In this document: positions 2,558 to 30,334 of the stretch, piece by piece | Position numbering within the stretch: position 1 is the stretch's first letter | Layout of the letters: each line of letters opens with the position of its first letter | From: a virus | Virus record (IMG/VR): IMGVR_UViG_3300033553_000821 | Coordinates: 1 to 31,519 of that record | Length of the DNA stretch: 31,519 nucleotides | Direction: 5' to 3' (one strand) | Program-made: the position numbers and the translations under genes | The notes under the pieces: generated by a model | Seen by the model: the letters and a program-made list of their open reading frames with translations, nothing else | Database searches by the model: none | What the model was told of the DNA's origin: nothing

Positions 2558-3778
2558 ATGAGTAACCATTTTATCATCGAAGGAACCATTGCAGATGTAG
2601 TAAACGGGCAATTCTTCAAGGGAGGGATTGAAGTAAACCACGGAATAATTACCCGAATCTACAAAAAAGCAGATGTTCCCGAACAGTTTATCCTCCCCGG
2701 CTTGATTGACGCCCACATCCATATCGAAAGTTCGATGCTGGTTCCTTCGGAATTTGCACGACTGGCCGTAGTACATGGCACGGTAGCAACAGTGTCGGAT
2801 CCACATGAAATTGCCAACGTCCTGGGACTTTATGGAATTGATTTCATGATCAGAAACAGCCAGGAAGTTCCGTTCAAATTCTTTTTCGGCGCACCAAGCT
2901 GCGTACCGGCTACATCATTTGAATCATCAGGAGCCCACTTGGGACCCGAGGAAATTGCCGCTCTGCTGGTAAAAAAGGACATTAAATACCTCTCCGAAAT
3001 GATGAATTTCCCCGGAGTGATTAATAACGACAAAGAGGTAATGGCGAAAATCGATATCGCCAAAAAACAGCAGAAGCCCATAGACGGCCATGCTCCTGGT
3101 CTTACCGGCGAGCAGCTCAGGAAATACATTGCAAGCGGTATCACGACCGATCACGAATGTTTTACCCTGGAAGAAGCGCGCGAAAAAATCGCTTATGGCA
3201 TGAAGGTGCTGATCAGAGAGGGAAGCGCTGCCAAAAATTTTGACACACTCATTCCCTTAATTGAAGAGAACAGCACAAATATCATGTTCTGTTCGGATGA
3301 TAAACATCCCGACGAACTGCTAGAGGGACATATTAACCTGATGATCAGAAGAGCGATTCAGTTGGGATATGATCCTCTCCAAATCTTAAAGGTATGCACA
3401 CTAAACCCGGTACGTCACTATCAGCTTGACGTTGGACTTTTGCAACAAGGAGATCCTGCCGATTTCATTATCGTGGATAATTTTAACGATTTTAACATCG
3501 CAGCAACCTATATCAACGGGCAAGCAGTGTCCCGTAGCACTCACTGTCTTTTTTCCACCGAAAAAGGAGAAGCACCTAATATATTCAACGCGTCACCCCT
3601 ATCCACGGAGGATATAAAAGTTCCGGCCCTGGCAGGCACGATCAGGATCATCAGAGCACTTGACGGTCAATTGATCACCAAACAGGAAATTGGAGAAGCG
3701 AAAATTAAAGACAATCTGGTTGTAAGCTTGCACGTAAACGTAGAAATTTTTGCACGTAAACATAGAATTTTTCTTTAG
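2558..3778 (+). pseudogene. ade: Adenine deaminase, 3' truncated by prophage insertion
   Basis: Adenine deaminase converts adenine to hypoxanthine and ammonia in purine salvage and is a metal-dependent amidohydrolase. The amidohydrolase core is recognisable: GLIDAHIHIESS (metal-binding HxH) near residue 47, SDPHEIANV, DGHAPGLTG, DHECFTLEEA and CSDDKHPDELLEGH. Normal family members run to roughly 540-600 residues. This frame has only 406, and the last 18 or so (from about Leu391) are read from phage end repeats and do not resemble the family. The whole C-terminal domain is missing because the Mu-like prophage inserted at codon 388-389. The ribosome-binding site before the ATG is weak. The remaining 3' part should lie beyond the other prophage end. 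The product is probably inactive. Confidence 0.88.
3721..3772. repeat. Prophage right end: TG terminus and two tandem 22-bp transposase-binding-site-like repeats
   Basis: The phage DNA most likely starts with the TG at 3721-3722. Two directly adjoining 22-bp repeats follow at 3729-3750 and 3751-3772, each starting tgcacgtaaac and ending in a T-run; they differ at two positions only. In Mu the right end also begins TG, with sites R1 and R2 abutting, and its first bases contain GCACG followed by an A-rich run, much like this. If the usual 5-bp target duplication applies, it would be ctggt at 3716-3720. The exact junction cannot be proved without the other end. Confidence 0.75.
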
Positions 3779-3822: not shown

Positions 3823-4590
3823 CTAATTGTAATTCGAAATCAGCAGCTCAGTCCTCAACTTCGCCCTGCTCGCTTTTGATGCGGAGCAAGAGTATTTCAA
3901 GGTAACCTCCTCAATCGAAAAACCACTGAATATCTCTCTGACTTGCGGCGTATCGTTGATAGTCATGAGGAACTTGCCTTTGATGCCTTTTAGGATATCG
4001 CGAAGGTCATAAAAATCCTGTTCAGCAAAATCATATTTATAGCCTGGAATCTTCCAGTACGGCGGGTCCAGGAAGAAAAACGAGTGCGGCCGGTCGTATC
4101 TGGTGATCAGGTCGCGAAAGTCTTTACACTCTATAGTCACATGAATCATCCGCTTCCAGGCATCTTCGATGGTGCTTTCAAGCGTCAGCAGGTTCAAGCG
4201 CGGTTTACCGGTCGTACTCATGCCGAAGGTTTGTCCGGTTATATGACCGCCGAAGGCATTCTTCTGCAGATAAAGGTACCTCGCCGCCCTTTGGACATCA
4301 GTAAGAGTTTCAGGGTTGACCTGTTGTTCTCTGGCGAATTCAGAGCGAGAAACCAGACTAAATTTATACTGTTTATAAAGTTCTTCGGGATGATGCTTGA
4401 TCACCCGATACAAAGTGACCAGGTCTTTATCGAGATCATTTAGGACTTCTGCTTTTGATGGTTCCTTGGCAAAGAAGACACTCGCCCCTCCGGCAAATAC
4501 CTCGACATAACAGGTATGCGCAGGGATCTTGTCGATGATGGTTTTTGCCAGTCGCGATTTGCCGCCGAAATAGGGTATTACTCCTTTCAT
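3823..4590 (-). CDS. D12-class N6-adenine DNA methyltransferase (Dam-like)
   Basis: Transfers a methyl group from S-adenosylmethionine to adenine in a specific DNA sequence. The D12 (Dam/M.DpnII) class is shown by the N-terminal YFGGKSRL (residues 7-14) with EVFAGGASVFF (30-40), which form the AdoMet-binding motifs, and by the catalytic DPPY at 175-178. At 255 residues it is full length for the family. It is the last phage gene before the right end, the place where Mu keeps its DNA-modification gene mom. The likely role is to protect phage DNA from host restriction, or to mimic or override host Dam marking. No partner endonuclease is seen. The recognition site cannot be read from the sequence; GATC is only a guess. 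A hairpin-rich leader precedes it. Confidence 0.93.
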   Translation of the reverse strand: MKGVIPYFGGKSRLAKTIIDKIPAHTCYVEVFAGGASVFFAKEPSKAEVLNDLDKDLVTLYRVIKHHPEELYKQYKFSLVSRSEFAREQQVNPETLTDVQRAARYLYLQKNAFGGHITGQTFGMSTTGKPRLNLLTLESTIEDAWKRMIHVTIECKDFRDLITRYDRPHSFFFLDPPYWKIPGYKYDFAEQDFYDLRDILKGIKGKFLMTINDTPQVREIFSGFSIEEVTLKYSCSASKASRAKLRTELLISNYN

Positions 4591-12710: not shown

Positions 12711-15700
12711 TTATCCTAATATAGTCTTTATGGACGACCCGTTGCGCCGGATCATGTTCAGCAGCACCGTTTCCCCGCCCGGGGTCTGCAGGTAATCGCC
12801 CACCATGTTCTTGTCCAGCACGTTGACCACCCGCAGGTTGGTGTTCACCGTGCTGCCGCCGCTGCCGGCCATAAATCCAGCCACCGCCCCCCCGTCGGCC
12901 AGCCTGTTTGAGGGGGCCCTGGTGGTGGCGATGGTGTCCATGGACTTGGCCAGCGCCAGCGGGAAGATCCCCGCCCGCACCGACTCCATGAAGCCGAGGC
13001 CGTATTTGCGCACCGCCGACACCGGGTGCATGAACTCGCCCGCCGTCGCCCAGATGGGGATATTGTCGGCCCGGCTGTTCGGGCTGGAACCTGGGATCCG
13101 GCCGCCGGGGGCGAATTTCAAAACCCGGCCGCCGGTCGCCAACCCCTGCACCTCCCCGCCGGTCGCATAGCCCAGGGCGTGGGTGGTGGCGATGATGGCG
13201 TTATAGATCAGCTGCTGCAGGATCATCTTGGCGATCATCTCCAGGGTGGCGCGGGCAAAGTCCATGAAGGCGTCCTTGGCCGTTTTCGTCCCCATGCCGA
13301 AGGCCATGATCGCCTCCGTCATCCCCGAGGCCAACTGGCCGTAGATGTCGGTCATGAGCTGGGCGGTAAATTCGGCCATGGTCCTGGCGCCCGCCGCGAA
13401 GTCCTCGAAACCAAGCCAGGCGGCGGCCACCATGTCAGCGCCCGCCAGGATCATCCGCCGGTTCGCCTCCTCCATGTCCATGGCCCCGGCCTGGGCTGCC
13501 GCCTGGACTGCCCGCCGGTACTCCTCCACCGAGGCCTTGCCCTTGCGCCAGGCGTCCTCCGTCACCCGCAGCATCTCGGCGGTCTCGGCCTTGTGCGCCG
13601 CGGCCCGCTGCCTGGCCCCGTCGATCCGCAAGCCCAGCAGCTCTTCCTCGGCCCGCATCAGGTTCTGCTGATACTGGCTGTCGAGCTGGTCGAGGCTCGC
13701 GATCTCGGCCTGCTTCAGGGCGATCTTTTTGGCGCTGATCTGCTCATCAATCGCCGCTTCCGCCTGCATCCTGGCCAATACCGTCGGCAACCGGCCCGCC
13801 TCGATCTTCTGCTCTTCCAGGCCGATCAGGACCATCTGCCCCCGATGCCGCTCGCCGGCCTGCTCCAGCAGCCGGAGCCGTTTTATCTCATCCTCGGCGG
13901 CCTTGGCGTTGGTCTCGTCCAGTTTTCGGGAGGCCTCCACCTCCGCCTTCAGCAGCCCGAGCCGCTGCACGCGCAGCCCGTTGATCTTGGCATCCATCTC
14001 GGCGCGGGCGTCGGCGCCCTCCTGGCCGGGGGCATTGGTGGGAACCAGCGCCTGCAACTCCTGATATTTCCTGATCTCGGCGTCCAGCAGCCCCAGCTTC
14101 TGCGTGCGCAGCAGGTTCTCGGCCTGGGCGGCATCCATGCCCTGCCGGGAATAGGCGAGGGCCGCCTCCGCCAGGGCCAGTTCGCCCTGCGAGGCGGTGA
14201 CCCCCATCTGCTGCAGTTCCTTGTCCAGCTTATCCTGAAAGGCCTGCCACGAGGCCGCATCCATCTCCGGGGCCTTGACCGGCGGCAGTTGCAGTTCGGC
14301 CGCGACCGGCTGCCACTTGGCCCCGCGCCTGAGCTCTAATTGTTTCTGGATATGGGCCTTGCGGGCGGCCTCTTCCGCCGAGAGCTGCGTCTTCAGCGCG
14401 GCCATGCCCCCTTTTGTCGACTCTTCGGCGATCTCCCGGTTCATCTCGCCGAAGATCTGTCTGACCTGTTCGGCCTTGGCCCGCACCGCCGCCACGTCGC
14501 CGCCGGTGAGCATGGCCCACCACTCGGCGACCTTGAGGCGGGCCAGCTCGAAGGTCTCAATCAGGACATTGGCGGCTGTCTTCACCAGGTCAAACTTGGC
14601 CAGGATCTCACCCACGGCCCAGCCCACCCCAAAGGCCGCCAGCACGCCGCCGGCGACGGTCAGGGTCGTCCTCAGGGTCAGGGCGGCCAGGTTGATCCCC
14701 TTGAAGGCCCCGATGACCCCCGCCGACTGGCCGACCGCCCCGAGCATCATCATCTTCAGGATCTCGAAGGCCTTGACCAGCGGCCCCAGGATCACCGCCG
14801 ACGTGGCCAGGGTGACCAGCGCCGCCGAGATCTGGGGGAAGGCGGCGGCAAAGTCAGCCAGCAGCCTGATGGCCGCGGTGATCGGCCGGAGAATATTCTT
14901 GATCGCCGGCAGGAAGACCGTCCCCAGATTGATCCCCGCCTCGCGGACCGCATTTTTCATGAGGATCAGCTGGTTCTCCGTGGTCGCGGCCCGGGCCGCA
15001 AACTCCTTGTTCATCGAGCCGGCGTATTCCGTCTTCTCGGCCACCTGTCCCAGGGCCTCCTGATACGTCTGCAGCCCGCTCACCAGCACGGCGATATCGT
15101 CCTGGAACTCACGGCCGAACAGTCCGGTCAAGACCTCGGCCTTCTTCTGCCCGTCAAGTTTGCTCAAGGTCGTCAGCAGATTTTCAATCGCCGCCTGGGG
15201 ATCGGCCGCCACCTGCGCCGCCATATCCTGCGCTGACAGGCCGATCTTGGCCAGGGCGTCCTGGAACTCGCCGCTCTCCATGGTAGCGGTCTGCATCCGG
15301 TTGAGCAGGCTGTTGATCGAGGTGCTCGCCACCTCCGGGGCCTTGCCCAGCGACAGCATGGCCGCCGCCAGGGCCGCCGCCTCGGTGGTGGCCAGGCCGA
15401 ATTGCTGGGCCGCGCCGCCGATCCGCTGCATGACATCCACAATATCCCGCTCCCGCGCGGCCGAGGTGTTGCCCAGCTGGTTGATGGCATCGCCGAAGGT
15501 CTCAACCTCGGCGATGCTGAGTTTATAGATGTTCTTGATCTTGCCGATGGAGTCGCCCGCCGCCTCGGCGCTCATGTCGAAGGCGGTCGCCATCTTCGCC
15601 GTCACCTGGGTGAAGGCCGCAATGTCCTTGGTGGCGATCCCGAGCTGCCCGGCGGCCGCGGCGATCTGGGCCAGCTCGTCGGCGGTGAGCGGCAAGGTCC

Positions 15701-16340
15701 GCGTCAGGGCCAGCAGCTCGCCCCGCAGGACCGCGAAGGCCTCAGGCGTGGCCTCCACCACCTTCTTGACCCCGGCCATGGATGATTCAAACTTGACGGC
15801 GGCGCCGATGGCCAGCACGGTGGGGGCAATCGCCGCCGCCGCTTCCAGCAGGCCCATCTTGAGGCCGGACAGCGCCTCCCGCCAGCCGTTGGTCTTGGCG
15901 GTCAGGGTCTCGATCTGGCCGCGCAGGGCCACCTTGGCCTGGGCCAGTTCGGCCATGGACAGCTTGCCGGATGAGGCCAGCGCGGTATAGGCCGCCCGGG
16001 CCTTATTGATCTCGGCCGTAATGTCGGCGTGGGGGGTCAGGTTCAGGGTGGTGCGGGCCTGGGAGACCGTCGCCAGCTCTTTATAGCTGGCGACGGTGGC
16101 GGTAAGCTCAGCCCGCAGTCTCACCTGTTGCGCGGCCAGGGCGGCCGCGCCGCTCCTGTCGTTGCCGCCGGCCCGAGACTGCTGGGCCAGCTCCTTCATC
16201 TTGACGGTGACCGCGGCCAGCTCCTGCTTGATCTTGCCATAGGCCGAGGAAAAGTCAGCGACGATCCGGTCGGTGCCGGTCTTGACTTCTTTTGAGTCAA
16301 CGCCTATCTTTATTTCAATAGTTGAGGAGGTCTTTGCCAT
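12711..16340 (-). CDS. Tail tape measure protein (TP901 type)
   Basis: 1209 residues. The N-terminus is coiled coil. From about residue 180, FESSMAGVKKVVEATPEAF leads into a TP901-type tape-measure core with TADELAQIAAAAGQLGI and SMLSLGKAPEVAST-like stretches. Hydrophobic helices follow (about 500-600), then long Ala/Glu/Arg-rich coiled coils, and a Gly-rich C-terminus. The protein fills the tail tube during assembly and sets tail length; at about 0.15 nm per residue it predicts a tail near 180 nm. It lies downstream of the frameshifted chaperone genes, as in most long-tailed phages. The start ATG at 16340 shares a CCATGG palindrome with a plus-strand start on the other strand. Long plus-strand frames inside it are shadows. 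Confidence 0.93.
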   Translation of the reverse strand: MAKTSSTIEIKIGVDSKEVKTGTDRIVADFSSAYGKIKQELAAVTVKMKELAQQSRAGGNDRSGAAALAAQQVRLRAELTATVASYKELATVSQARTTLNLTPHADITAEINKARAAYTALASSGKLSMAELAQAKVALRGQIETLTAKTNGWREALSGLKMGLLEAAAAIAPTVLAIGAAVKFESSMAGVKKVVEATPEAFAVLRGELLALTRTLPLTADELAQIAAAAGQLGIATKDIAAFTQVTAKMATAFDMSAEAAGDSIGKIKNIYKLSIAEVETFGDAINQLGNTSAARERDIVDVMQRIGGAAQQFGLATTEAAALAAAMLSLGKAPEVASTSINSLLNRMQTATMESGEFQDALAKIGLSAQDMAAQVAADPQAAIENLLTTLSKLDGQKKAEVLTGLFGREFQDDIAVLVSGLQTYQEALGQVAEKTEYAGSMNKEFAARAATTENQLILMKNAVREAGINLGTVFLPAIKNILRPITAAIRLLADFAAAFPQISAALVTLATSAVILGPLVKAFEILKMMMLGAVGQSAGVIGAFKGINLAALTLRTTLTVAGGVLAAFGVGWAVGEILAKFDLVKTAANVLIETFELARLKVAEWWAMLTGGDVAAVRAKAEQVRQIFGEMNREIAEESTKGGMAALKTQLSAEEAARKAHIQKQLELRRGAKWQPVAAELQLPPVKAPEMDAASWQAFQDKLDKELQQMGVTASQGELALAEAALAYSRQGMDAAQAENLLRTQKLGLLDAEIRKYQELQALVPTNAPGQEGADARAEMDAKINGLRVQRLGLLKAEVEASRKLDETNAKAAEDEIKRLRLLEQAGERHRGQMVLIGLEEQKIEAGRLPTVLARMQAEAAIDEQISAKKIALKQAEIASLDQLDSQYQQNLMRAEEELLGLRIDGARQRAAAHKAETAEMLRVTEDAWRKGKASVEEYRRAVQAAAQAGAMDMEEANRRMILAGADMVAAAWLGFEDFAAGARTMAEFTAQLMTDIYGQLASGMTEAIMAFGMGTKTAKDAFMDFARATLEMIAKMILQQLIYNAIIATTHALGYATGGEVQGLATGGRVLKFAPGGRIPGSSPNSRADNIPIWATAGEFMHPVSAVRKYGLGFMESVRAGIFPLALAKSMDTIATTRAPSNRLADGGAVAGFMAGSGGSTVNTNLRVVNVLDKNMVGDYLQTPGGETVLLNMIRRNGSSIKTILG

Positions 16341-28183: not shown

Positions 28184-28312
28184 ATGTCAAAGGTAGATAT
28201 AGGAGATTTGTGGAAGAGGGGTAAGACTGAGTTGTTTCAGGTGTTTTATTGCGGAGTGCTTCAGGGATGGGTGACGGTGAGGAGAAAAAAGGGGAGACAG
28301 CGTTGTACTTGA
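28184..28312 (+). CDS. Possible 42-residue plus-strand protein upstream of the moron
   Basis: ATG 28184 stands six bases after GGAG. The frame (MSKVDIGDLWKRGKTELFQ...) runs 42 codons to TGA at 28310-28312, which overlaps the -35 of the moron promoter. The product is small and basic, ending in RRKKGRQRCT. No family is recognised. It lies in a region without a minus-strand gene. It could be a real leader gene of the moron cassette, or chance. Confidence 0.3.
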   Translation: MSKVDIGDLWKRGKTELFQVFYCGVLQGWVTVRRKKGRQRCT

Positions 28313-28338
28313 CGTCATCTTTATGACGAGTGTATAAC
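28309..28338 (+). promoter_or_regulatory. Sigma-70-type promoter with inverted repeat in the spacer (moron promoter)
   Basis: TTGACG (28309-28314) and TATAAC (28333-28338) are separated by 18 bases. CGTCAT (28313-28318) and ATGACG (28323-28328) form a perfect inverted repeat around CTTT inside the spacer, a likely operator. The transcript would run into the plus-strand gene at 28408, opposite to the phage operon. Confidence 0.65.
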
Positions 28339-28407
28339 CTAAACATCTAACAACAACAAGCGTTGGAAAAACACTTATTAATCTTTGACCGGATGAGGGG
28401 TTAGCTC

Positions 28408-28824
28408 ATGAATAAACGTCCACCAAATTCTTCTCAACAACAGCAACCGTCATTAATTATTTTGGTGGGTGGTGGCTTCTTAATTTTTTGCGTATTGTTT
28501 GCCGTCTACGCGGAATTAACGGGAATGAGCAAGAGCCCTTCCCCAGATGCGGCCGGCAACTTAACCACTATGGCCTTCGTCCAGTGTCAGGATATCGTAA
28601 AAGGTGAACTTGTTTCACCTAGCACGGCCGACTTTCCATTTATGGACTTTTCTGCCAATGCCGCCCCAGACAACCTCTATATCATCAAATCCTACGTCGA
28701 CTCCCAGAATGGTTTTGGCGCGACCATCCGAACACGATGGCGCTGTAAGGCGAGATATATCGGCGGAGATAAAGCCGATCCGCGCAGCTGGAAGCTGGTT
28801 GACCTGCAGATGTACAAACGCTAA
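28408..28824 (+). CDS. Membrane-anchored moron protein of unknown function
   Basis: 138 residues on the plus strand, against the phage operon. A polar, Gln-rich N-terminus is followed by one membrane helix (about 16-38, LIILVGGGFLIFCVLFAVYA). The outer domain has CQDIVKGELVSPSTADFPF and later YVDSQNGFGATIRTRWRC with WKLVDLQMY; the pair of Cys may bond. A domain with the same pattern (C..VK..L.SPSTADFP...VD.QN.FG....W.C) recurs in small envelope proteins of phages and bacteria, without an assigned activity. It has its own promoter and terminator and is more AT-rich than its neighbours, which marks it as a moron expressed in the lysogen. Superinfection exclusion is a reasonable guess. Confidence 0.85.
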   Translation: MNKRPPNSSQQQQPSLIILVGGGFLIFCVLFAVYAELTGMSKSPSPDAAGNLTTMAFVQCQDIVKGELVSPSTADFPFMDFSANAAPDNLYIIKSYVDSQNGFGATIRTRWRCKARYIGGDKADPRSWKLVDLQMYKR

Positions 28825-28847
28825 CGTGGAGATGAATCTGAATGGCG

Positions 28848-28886
28848 ATAAGGGGAGTGCAAATAGCCACCCCCTTATTTTTTTTT
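28848..28886 (+). terminator. Rho-independent terminator of the moron
   Basis: ATAAGGGG (28848-28855) pairs perfectly with CCCCTTAT (28871-28878), extended by an inner GTG/CAC with one bulged A. An uninterrupted T-run reaches 28886. It closes the plus-strand moron. On the minus strand there is no U-run after the stem, so phage late transcription should pass. Confidence 0.9.
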
Positions 28887-28907: not shown

Positions 28908-29075
28908 TCAGCCAACCGCCCGGCGCAACTGCACCAGCAAACCGTAGCCCACCAGCGCCAGGCACAGGCCGACGCTAACCAGGCCTTGCATGAACACGCA
29001 GAAAATCATGCCACCCCCCATGCTCACCCAGGGGAACAACCGATACATCGGCTCAGGTATCCACACTGCTCGCAT
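28908..29075 (-). CDS. Small conserved membrane protein (MRAVWIPEP type)
   Basis: 55 residues starting at ATG 29075, five bases after a perfect AAGGAGG. The sequence starts MRAVWIPEPMYRLFPWV and has one long hydrophobic stretch of about 35 residues (GGGMIFCVFMQGLVSVGLCLALVGYGLL), perhaps two short passes, before a basic end. Short proteins that begin with R..WIPEP.Y and carry membrane helices occur in the same place, right after Mor, in related transposable siphophages. Function is unknown; a holin or antiholin role is possible given the lysis genes downstream. Confidence 0.75.
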   Translation of the reverse strand: MRAVWIPEPMYRLFPWVSMGGGMIFCVFMQGLVSVGLCLALVGYGLLVQLRRAVG

Positions 29076-29412: not shown

Positions 29413-29849
29413 TCCACTCCCGCGCTTACCTGCCGCTTGTTCAGATCGGTGATCAGTACATGCAGATCCCGCTGATCGGTCAGCCACTCAAACCGCTCCA
29501 CCCCGAACTGCCGCTTGCAGCGCTTGTGCAGCTTGTCCATGCCGTAGCCCAGGGAGTTCCACATGGCCAGGACCTTGCGCTGCTGGGCCGCGGTCGGGCC
29601 GGGCTGGATCTCGATAAAGTTGCCGTCCCGCCGCTTCGCCCTGGGCGCGCCGGCCGGGGCCTTCTTCGGCTTCCAGCCTTTGCTGCGGAAATGCTCCAGG
29701 AGCTGATCAGCCTGCCGAATGGTGAGCCCCTTGGCGCTCTGGACGCCCTTAAAGTTGAGGGCCAGGATATCGCGGTAGATATCGTCGGTCAGCTGCAAAT
29801 CTTTCTTGGCAATATGGATCTTGGCCAGCTGGGCCATGGTTGGCGGCAT
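29409..29849 (-). CDS. gemA: GemA-like regulator (DUF1018)
   Basis: 146 residues from ATG 29849, which overlaps the stop of the ASCH-like gene (ATGA) and follows GAGGTG. The frame extends upstream to 29873 but that start lacks a site. The family features are MAQLAKIHIAKKDLQLTDDIYRDIL, the SAKGLTIRQADQLLEHFRSKGW segment and VLAMWNSLGYGMDKLHKRCKRQFG. GemA of Mu alters host gene expression and DNA supercoiling. It directly precedes mor, as in Mu. Confidence 0.92.
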   Translation of the reverse strand: MPPTMAQLAKIHIAKKDLQLTDDIYRDILALNFKGVQSAKGLTIRQADQLLEHFRSKGWKPKKAPAGAPRAKRRDGNFIEIQPGPTAAQQRKVLAMWNSLGYGMDKLHKRCKRQFGVERFEWLTDQRDLHVLITDLNKRQVSAGVE

Positions 29850-30334
29850 CAGGACACCTCGACTTTCTTGCATAATTCATCCGTCCAAGACAGCCCGCCC
29901 CCGCACAGCTGTGCGGTGCAGGCTGGACACAGGCTCTCTTGAAGCGAGACCAAGACCCCGCAGCCACCACAGCGCCAGGGCATATAGATAGACTTTTCCA
30001 TTTTTTTAACATCATTTGAAATCCGGTAGTTTTCGAACCTGATTATTCTTCCAATATTTATCTGAATGATAAGGCCCTCTAGCTCTTCTCCATTAGCGCA
30101 GCGGCAATAGTTCGCACCTTTGCCGATTGCAAAGAGAAATTCAGTGACCACCAAGGGCCGGTGATGACCGTAACCATTGCGAAAATGGATCTCGTCAAAC
30201 TGCTTTGGTGTTCCATTTTCATTAAAGAGCCGCTTTCGCCAACGAGGAGTGTCTTGCCGATATTCAACAACCTTGAATCCTGTCGCGATCAGATCAAACC
30301 ATTTGCGGTAGAGAGTGAGATGTAATATTGGCAT
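29849..30334 (-). CDS. ASCH-like domain protein with C-terminal zinc ribbon
   Basis: 161 residues. The N-terminus MPILHLTLYRKWFDLIATGFKVVEYR, then FDEIHFRNGYGHHRPLVV, fits the ASCH/PUA-like fold of small phage proteins, thought to bind RNA or modified nucleobases. The usual end of such proteins is the QINIGR strand near residue 95. Here a further 65 residues carry CGGC (122-125) and CPAC (136-139), a zinc ribbon. No ribosome-binding site precedes the internal Met112, so this looks like one fused protein. The gene is visibly more AT-rich than its neighbours, suggesting recent acquisition. It overlaps the genes on both sides by single or few bases. Confidence 0.72.
   Translation of the reverse strand: MPILHLTLYRKWFDLIATGFKVVEYRQDTPRWRKRLFNENGTPKQFDEIHFRNGYGHHRPLVVTEFLFAIGKGANYCRCANGEELEGLIIQINIGRIIRFENYRISNDVKKMEKSIYMPWRCGGCGVLVSLQESLCPACTAQLCGGGLSWTDELCKKVEVS

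What the first reader, a model, noticed from the sequence alone, without database searches (positions are those of the whole stretch)
28184..28886. Complete moron cassette with its own regulated promoter and terminator
A promoter with an inverted repeat between -35 and -10, an AT-rich membrane protein gene and a perfect terminator run against the phage operon, just where late transcription starts on the other strand. A possible 42-codon gene precedes it. The cassette is built for expression in the lysogen, and the operator-like repeat implies a specific repressor.
Basis: partly seen in the sequence, partly recalled or inferred. Interest (0 to 1): 0.6.

Follow-up and report, generated by a model that had tools for sequence, protein, structure and literature searches.

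The report
Phage moron encoding membrane-anchored exclusion-like protein
A virus of bacteria carries a small, self-contained extra gene for a membrane-anchored protein whose relatives repeatedly sit beside the gene for the phage's DNA-injection "tape measure", which suggests that it keeps rival phages out of an infected cell, although this is untested.

Summary
The cassette is real, but two of its parts are not. The window is a B3/Mu-like transposable phage. A + strand unit (promoter TTGACG-N18-TATAAC at 28309-28338, 138-aa ORF at 28408-28824, terminator at 28847-28886) lies antisense between the Mor-like regulator and the lysin. One phage relative keeps gene, hexamers and terminator. Others have an empty site or different cargo, so it meets the definition of a moron. 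The inverted repeat is not conserved in that relative, occurs once in the window, and is weak against chance; a specific repressor is not supported. The "42-codon gene" is the reverse strand of the phage's own late promoter: a Mor-type dyad centred at -43.5, conserved in six phages. The protein belongs to an uncharacterised family with an N-terminal membrane anchor and a predicted cystatin/NTF2-like domain bearing YVDSQNGFGA. Homologues sit beside the tape-measure gene in 10 of 17 informative records (5 of 12 after collapsing lineages, P about 3e-4): the slot of the exclusion gene HK97 gp15. Others lie in immunity/integrase modules, where the exclusion lipoprotein Ltp sits. Best reading: a lysogen-expressed moron that blocks DNA entry of superinfecting phages, probably through the tape-measure protein. 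Expression, topology and function are inferred.

The parts
28309..28338 (+). sigma-70-type promoter of the moron: -35 TTGACG (28309-28314), 18-bp spacer, -10 TATAAC (28333-28338)
   Evidence: 10/12 consensus matches, P about 0.02-0.03; both elements kept in L001 as TTGACT-N18-TATAAC
28313..28328 (.). inverted repeat CGTCAT-CTTT-ATGACG; probably not an operator
   Evidence: present, only copy in the record; 3 of 6 pairs broken in L001; weak against chance
28395..28400 (+). Shine-Dalgarno-like GAGGGG ahead of the moron start codon
   Evidence: sequence; same in L001
28408..28824 (+). moron ORF, 138 aa: N-terminal TM helix (about 15-38) plus predicted alpha-beta4 cystatin/NTF2-like domain (about 46-138) with motif YVDSQNGFGA
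   Evidence: phrog_13160 E 3e-14; no Pfam, NCBIfam or PADLOC match; AlphaFold2 pLDDT mostly above 90 in the domain; VIA Z 10.1 to a designed cystatin fold
28847..28886 (+). intrinsic terminator of the moron: stem-loop 28847-28879, T run 28878-28886
   Evidence: -15.9 kcal/mol, z -3.2; perfect-stem version at the same place in L001
28197..28240 (-). phage late promoter (opposite strand): Mor-type dyad CTGAAACAACTCAG (28227-28240) and -10 CTATAT (28202-28197), start near 28190
   Evidence: conserved in six phages whatever the cargo; dyad centre at -43.5, as for Mor in Mu Pm (PMC4390567)
   Evidence: non-synonymous changes dominate, start lost in L049, frame shifted in L134
27570..28088 (-). lytic transglycosylase (endolysin), first late gene beside the moron slot
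   Evidence: PF01464 E 8.5e-16; phrog_669
28908..29075 (-). 55-aa hydrophobic ORF on the early/middle side of the slot
   Evidence: no family match; lies in DNA 80-83% identical in L049/L001 and L132
29086..29406 (-). Mor-like activator (106 aa from the ATG), presumed user of the late promoter
   Evidence: PF08765 E 2.4e-7; phrog_836 late transcriptional activator

Best explanation
It is a moron: a self-contained, independently transcribed gene inserted between the end of the early/middle operon and the Mor-activated late promoter of a B3/Mu-like temperate phage, pointing against the phage operons. Its own sigma-70-type promoter most likely makes it active in the lysogen, and its terminator keeps the transcript to one gene. 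The protein is held in the cytoplasmic membrane by one N-terminal helix and most likely displays a small cystatin/NTF2-like domain on the outer side. I propose that this domain meets the tape-measure protein, or its membrane partner, of an incoming long-tailed phage and blocks DNA entry (superinfection exclusion). Shown here: cassette structure, insertion and replacement in relatives, family membership, recurrent tape-measure and immunity-module neighbourhoods. Inferred: expression in the lysogen (about 0.75), outward topology (about 0.75), exclusion function (about 0.45), tape measure as target (about 0.35).
For: Cassette: promoter hexamers and terminator kept around a 74%-identical homologue in L001; overall dN/dS about 0.45. 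Insertion: L050, L051, L054 and L134 lose homology at about 28245 and regain it at about 29084, and L132 carries other genes there; in StopSmel and Mwe-Yong1 the Mor-like gene is next to lysozyme. Membrane anchoring: in 40 of 40 distinct relatives the most hydrophobic segment precedes the motif, 10 have a zinc ribbon, 5 look like lipoproteins. Neighbourhood: within 1 kb of the tape-measure gene in 10 of 17 records, 1.36 expected, P 3e-8; 5 of 12 after collapsing lineages, P 3e-4. In a draw of 298 Pseudomonas genomes all 3 strong members are directly beside tape-measure sequence. The tape-measure-adjacent members tested have a terminator before that gene, including L034 and L043. The slot matches HK97 chaperone-gp15-terminator-tape measure. 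Others lie beside integrase or repressors, like Ltp, a membrane-tethered lipoprotein of the lysogeny module that blocks DNA injection by way of the tape-measure protein (PMC3952083). [quoted passage not shown]
Against: No expression or phenotype data. The window's own moron is not beside its tape-measure gene (12711-16340). The domain also occurs in loci that I did not show to be prophage (Flavobacteriia, Parcubacteria and others), so a general envelope role is possible. No sequence homology to any solved structure or defence model was found; gp15 itself was not compared directly. A shared slot may reflect ease of insertion rather than function.
Confidence: 0.45

Rival explanations
1. A lysogen-expressed moron, but its product serves the host envelope (stress, transport or assembly of an envelope complex) rather than excluding phages; the phage copy was taken from a bacterial membrane protein family.
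For: The domain occurs in 26 bacterial loci, several not shown to be prophage, and on a Phyllobacterium replicon among ordinary genes. The fold also resembles periplasmic domains of secretion proteins DotI/IcmL/VirB8.
Against: Does not explain the repeated tape-measure-adjacent and immunity-module placement.
Confidence: 0.3
2. The gene is regulated by a dedicated repressor that binds the CGTCAT-N4-ATGACG repeat between -35 and -10.
For: A perfect 6-bp dyad lies in the spacer; P 0.026 for one inside a 30-bp promoter.
Against: Three of six pairs are broken in the only relative that shares the cassette, while the hexamers are kept. No second copy in the record. About one such dyad is expected by chance in the intergenic region.
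Confidence: 0.08
3. The gene is expressed mainly in the lytic cycle, as an accessory that modifies the cell before lysis or protects the burst from late superinfection.
For: In Pseudomonas and Lysinibacillus phages the homologue is co-directional with tail genes, so late read-through could express it.
Against: It is antisense to all late genes here, with its own promoter and terminator; tail-operon homologues also have terminators.
Confidence: 0.12
4. The main role is in the RNA or the act of transcription: a promoter divergent from the late promoter sets timing by supercoiling or interference, and the protein is incidental.
For: The two promoters lie back to back, with predicted starts about 155 bp apart.
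Against: The protein is under purifying selection. Relatives without the cassette keep the late promoter. No Rfam match.
Confidence: 0.05

Closest known systems
HK97 gp15 moron (superinfection exclusion)
   Same: single-TM moron with its own terminator, in the slot between tail chaperones and tape measure that this family's Pseudomonas and Lysinibacillus members occupy
   Different: gp15 is about 62 aa and, from memory, YebO-like; no relation to this domain was found. The window copy lies between Mor and lysin and runs antisense.
Ltp lipoprotein of phage TP-J34
   Same: membrane-anchored with an outside domain, lysogeny-module placement, as for several family members
   Different: Ltp has repeat domains; no family or sequence link to Ltp was seen
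Tab of Pseudomonas phage JBD26
   Same: moron expressed from the prophage, recognises the tape measure (PMC10884400)
   Different: Tab is an 83-residue protein that blocks tail assembly and lies between the terminase genes; no TM anchor is described in the passages read
PHROG 13160 / 26910 / 2320 / 9700 (unknown function)
   Same: the window protein and 34 of 34 aligned members match phrog_13160
   Different: no function is recorded there
Regions of genomic plasticity in Mu-like Pseudomonas phages (PMC4378225)
   Same: single accessory genes with low GC inserted between core genes
   Different: I did not find this family or this antisense slot in the passages read

Membership tests
phage moron | inserted between two genes that are adjacent in related phages | tested here: met
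   empty or different site in L050, L051, L054, L134, L132; Mor next to lysozyme in StopSmel and Mwe-Yong1
phage moron | own promoter and terminator | tested here: met
   promoter kept in L001; terminator z -3.2 here and -6.2 in L001; both predicted only
phage moron | base composition unlike the neighbours | tested here: met
   47% GC against 58% for the window
phage moron | expressed from the repressed prophage | not testable with these tools
   needs RNA from a lysogen; host unknown
superinfection exclusion protein (HK97 gp15 / Ltp kind) | membrane anchor with the active part outside the cytoplasm | tested here: inconclusive
   anchor predicted; outward side inferred from lipoprotein-like and zinc-ribbon homologues
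superinfection exclusion protein (HK97 gp15 / Ltp kind) | linked to the tape-measure gene or the lysogeny module | tested here: inconclusive
   met for the family, not for the window copy itself, which lies between Mor and the lysin
superinfection exclusion protein (HK97 gp15 / Ltp kind) | blocks DNA entry of a superinfecting phage | not testable with these tools
   no experiment
HK97 gp15 (YebO-like) protein family | sequence homology to gp15/YebO | not tested
   gp15 was located but not aligned to this family; the phage-collection search at E 1e-5 returned only MinS1
cystatin/NTF2-like fold | alpha helix packed on a four-stranded antiparallel sheet | tested here: met
   AlphaFold2 helix plus four strands, pLDDT mostly above 90; VIA Z 10.1 to 4r80 and 8-9 to cystatins; Foldseek E only 0.035 at best

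The most novel reading that the evidence does not exclude
The YVDSQNGFGA family is an unrecognised, very widespread class of prophage exclusion proteins, displayed on the outside of the membrane, that read the tape-measure protein and travel as a matched pair with it, shared by phages of Pseudomonas, Lysinibacillus, Microcystis, Actinobacteria and Mu-like siphophages.
Probability: 0.25. Interest if true: 0.75.

Novelty: new member of a known kind. Interest (0 to 1): 0.45.

Why it matters
How long-tailed phages push DNA across the inner membrane, and how prophages stop rivals doing so, is known for only a few proteins (gp15, Ltp, SieA, Tab, SNIPE), several of which act through the tape-measure protein. 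If the association found here reflects function, one uncharacterised, structurally compact family with a strongly conserved motif gives a testable exclusion module in many genera. The late-promoter result also extends the Mor/Pm geometry (dyad at -43.5) to B3-like siphophages, where it would drive late genes.

Tried and rejected
(a) Operator/repressor: not conserved, single copy, near chance. (b) 42-codon gene: antisense of the late promoter, non-coding substitution pattern. (c) A structured RNA in the slot: no Rfam match. (d) Known defence family: no credible PADLOC, NCBIfam or Pfam match; the zinc-ribbon hits of L001 are generic. (e) Solved-structure homologue by sequence: none. (f) My first guess that the large gene after the Pseudomonas homologues was tail tip J was wrong; PHROGs shows tape measure. 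(g) Host: Mor-like relatives in 297 genomes of the phylum of a Desulfarculaceae MAG were all 39% identity or less; the host stays unknown. (h) The promoter's core (23 fixed bases) occurs in only one other viral contig, the one holding L001. (i) The generic terminator scan found no sites in the region, this one included, presumably because it does not allow bulges.

Full report
WHAT THE WINDOW IS. The window is a 31,519-base virus record. Its genes are those of a transposable siphophage of the B3/Mu kind: GemA and a Mor-like activator, lysin, portal, head protease, tape measure and tail proteins, and a large terminase 61% identical to that of Pseudomonas phage B3. The phage's core genes read on the - strand. 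The host is unknown.

THE CASSETTE. On the + strand, between the 55-aa ORF that follows the Mor-like gene and the lysin, lie a promoter (TTGACG-N18-TATAAC, 28309-28338), a Shine-Dalgarno-like GAGGGG, a 138-aa ORF (28408-28824) and a terminator (28847-28886; -15.9 kcal/mol, z -3.2). The promoter alone is weak statistically (P about 0.02-0.03). Support comes from L001, a relative with a 74%-identical homologue at the same site. It keeps both promoter elements, the ribosome-binding context and a stronger terminator. The L001 protein carries an extra N-terminal zinc ribbon of about 40 residues that the window copy lacks. The overall dN/dS between the two is about 0.45.

INSERTION. Backbone relatives L050, L051, L054 and L134 align to the window up to about 28243-28254 and again from about 29084, with only 45-195 bp between; L132 has two other genes there, and L049/L001 has this gene plus an anti-repressor. 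In the named phages StopSmel and Mwe-Yong1 the Mor-like gene is followed directly by lysozyme. The site is a cargo slot, and the element meets the usual definition of a moron (wording in PMC4378225).

THE LATE PROMOTER. What the six phages share in the intergenic region is a block on the - strand: CCTGAaacAaCTCAGtCTTA, then a -10-like CTATAT or close variant. The dyad CTGA-N6-TCAG is centred 43.5 bases before the start predicted from the -10. In Mu, Mor binds 5-bp inverted repeats in a 16-bp element centred at -43.5 of Pm (PMC4390567). I infer that this is the Mor-activated late promoter. The 42-codon ORF is its reverse strand: codon changes are nearly all non-synonymous, the start is missing in L049, and the frame shifts in L134.

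THE REPEAT. CGTCAT-CTTT-ATGACG reads CTGCAT-CTTT-GTGACG in L001, with three of six pairs broken, while the hexamers are kept. It is the only copy in the record, and about 1.3 such repeats are expected by chance in the intergenic region. A specific repressor is not supported. A lineage-specific operator cannot be excluded from two sequences.

THE PROTEIN FAMILY. The ORF matches PHROG families of unknown function and nothing in Pfam, NCBIfam or PADLOC. Forty-seven viral contigs and 26 bacterial loci encode relatives. The searches used YVDSQNGF as a pattern (alone in the genome scan), so its invariance in these sets is partly ascertainment. In all 40 distinct viral proteins the most hydrophobic segment precedes the motif; some have zinc ribbons and some look like lipoproteins, which suggests that the C-terminal domain is outside the cytoplasm. 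AlphaFold2 gives one helix and a four-stranded sheet at high confidence. VIA-align puts it closest to designed and natural cystatins (Z 8-10) and, lower, to NTF2-like, DotI, IcmL and VirB8 domains; Foldseek E-values are weak. A shared fold does not show function.

WHERE RELATIVES SIT. (i) Directly or one gene upstream of the tape-measure gene: L007, L008, L010, L011/L015, L012, L016, L017/L021, L022, L034, L043. Over 17 informative records, 10 are within 1 kb against 1.36 expected (P 3e-8); with lineages collapsed and short fragments dropped, 5 of 12 (P 3e-4; some gene edges there were estimated from hit coordinates). In a separate even draw of 298 Pseudomonas genomes, the three strong members are all beside tape-measure sequence. 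One of these three genomes (G050) is the genome of L144, which the first scan had already found, so two are new. The tape-measure-adjacent copies scanned are followed by a terminator. This is the arrangement of HK97 gp15. (ii) Within about 3 kb of an integrase or repressor: L009, L013, L020, L025, L027, L028/L029, L036, L044, L047, and Microcystis phage MinS1, where it lies between divergent HTH genes and the integrase. Many records are fragments, so counts are lower bounds.

INTERPRETATION. Two known exclusion proteins match these two placements. HK97 gp15 is membrane-located and blocks DNA entry; [quoted passage not shown] Ltp is a lipoprotein of the lysogeny module that stops injection through the tape-measure protein (PMC3952083). 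Tab and the nuclease SNIPE also recognise tape-measure proteins (PMC10884400; PMC13190303). I therefore propose exclusion at DNA entry as the likeliest function, at moderate confidence, and the tape measure as the likeliest target, at lower confidence. The window copy is an outlier in placement (antisense, beside the late promoter), and nothing here shows expression or activity. A general envelope role is the main rival, because the domain also occurs in bacterial loci not shown to be prophage.

NOVELTY. As an element it is a new member of a known kind (moron). The family and its tape-measure association were not found in the papers searched, but that library is partial and the 2012 gp15 paper itself was not held.

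Noticed in passing
window 2558-3778 (+): A 406-aa amidohydrolase (PF01979, E 4e-42) on the + strand in the phage's most AT-rich stretch (about 1.8-4.4 kb, 40-49% GC), convergent with a D12 adenine methyltransferase (3823-4590, -). It may be a second antisense cargo gene.
   Followed up: partly
L001 8676-9512 (-): The relative carries an anti-repressor (phrog_130, E 3.5e-38) in the same slot, right after the moron's terminator.
   Followed up: partly
L132 4629-4970 and 5028-5330 (+): In another relative the slot holds two unrelated genes with no PHROG match, one starting with a signal-peptide-like segment.
   Followed up: no
L172-L191 (Pseudomonas genomes): About twenty Pseudomonas genomes show a weak match (E 1e-4 to 1e-7) in open frames of about 250 aa, possibly a chromosomal paralogue family.
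   Followed up: no
L050 and L054, just after the late-promoter block: Where the moron is absent, a strong GC-rich hairpin (GGGATCGCGCG...CGATCCC) follows the conserved late-promoter block; L132 and L134 have other hairpins there. They may be early-operon terminators.
   Followed up: no
window 29849-30334 (-): 161-aa early ORF with a weak ASCH-like N-terminus and zinc-ribbon-like C-terminus.
   Followed up: no
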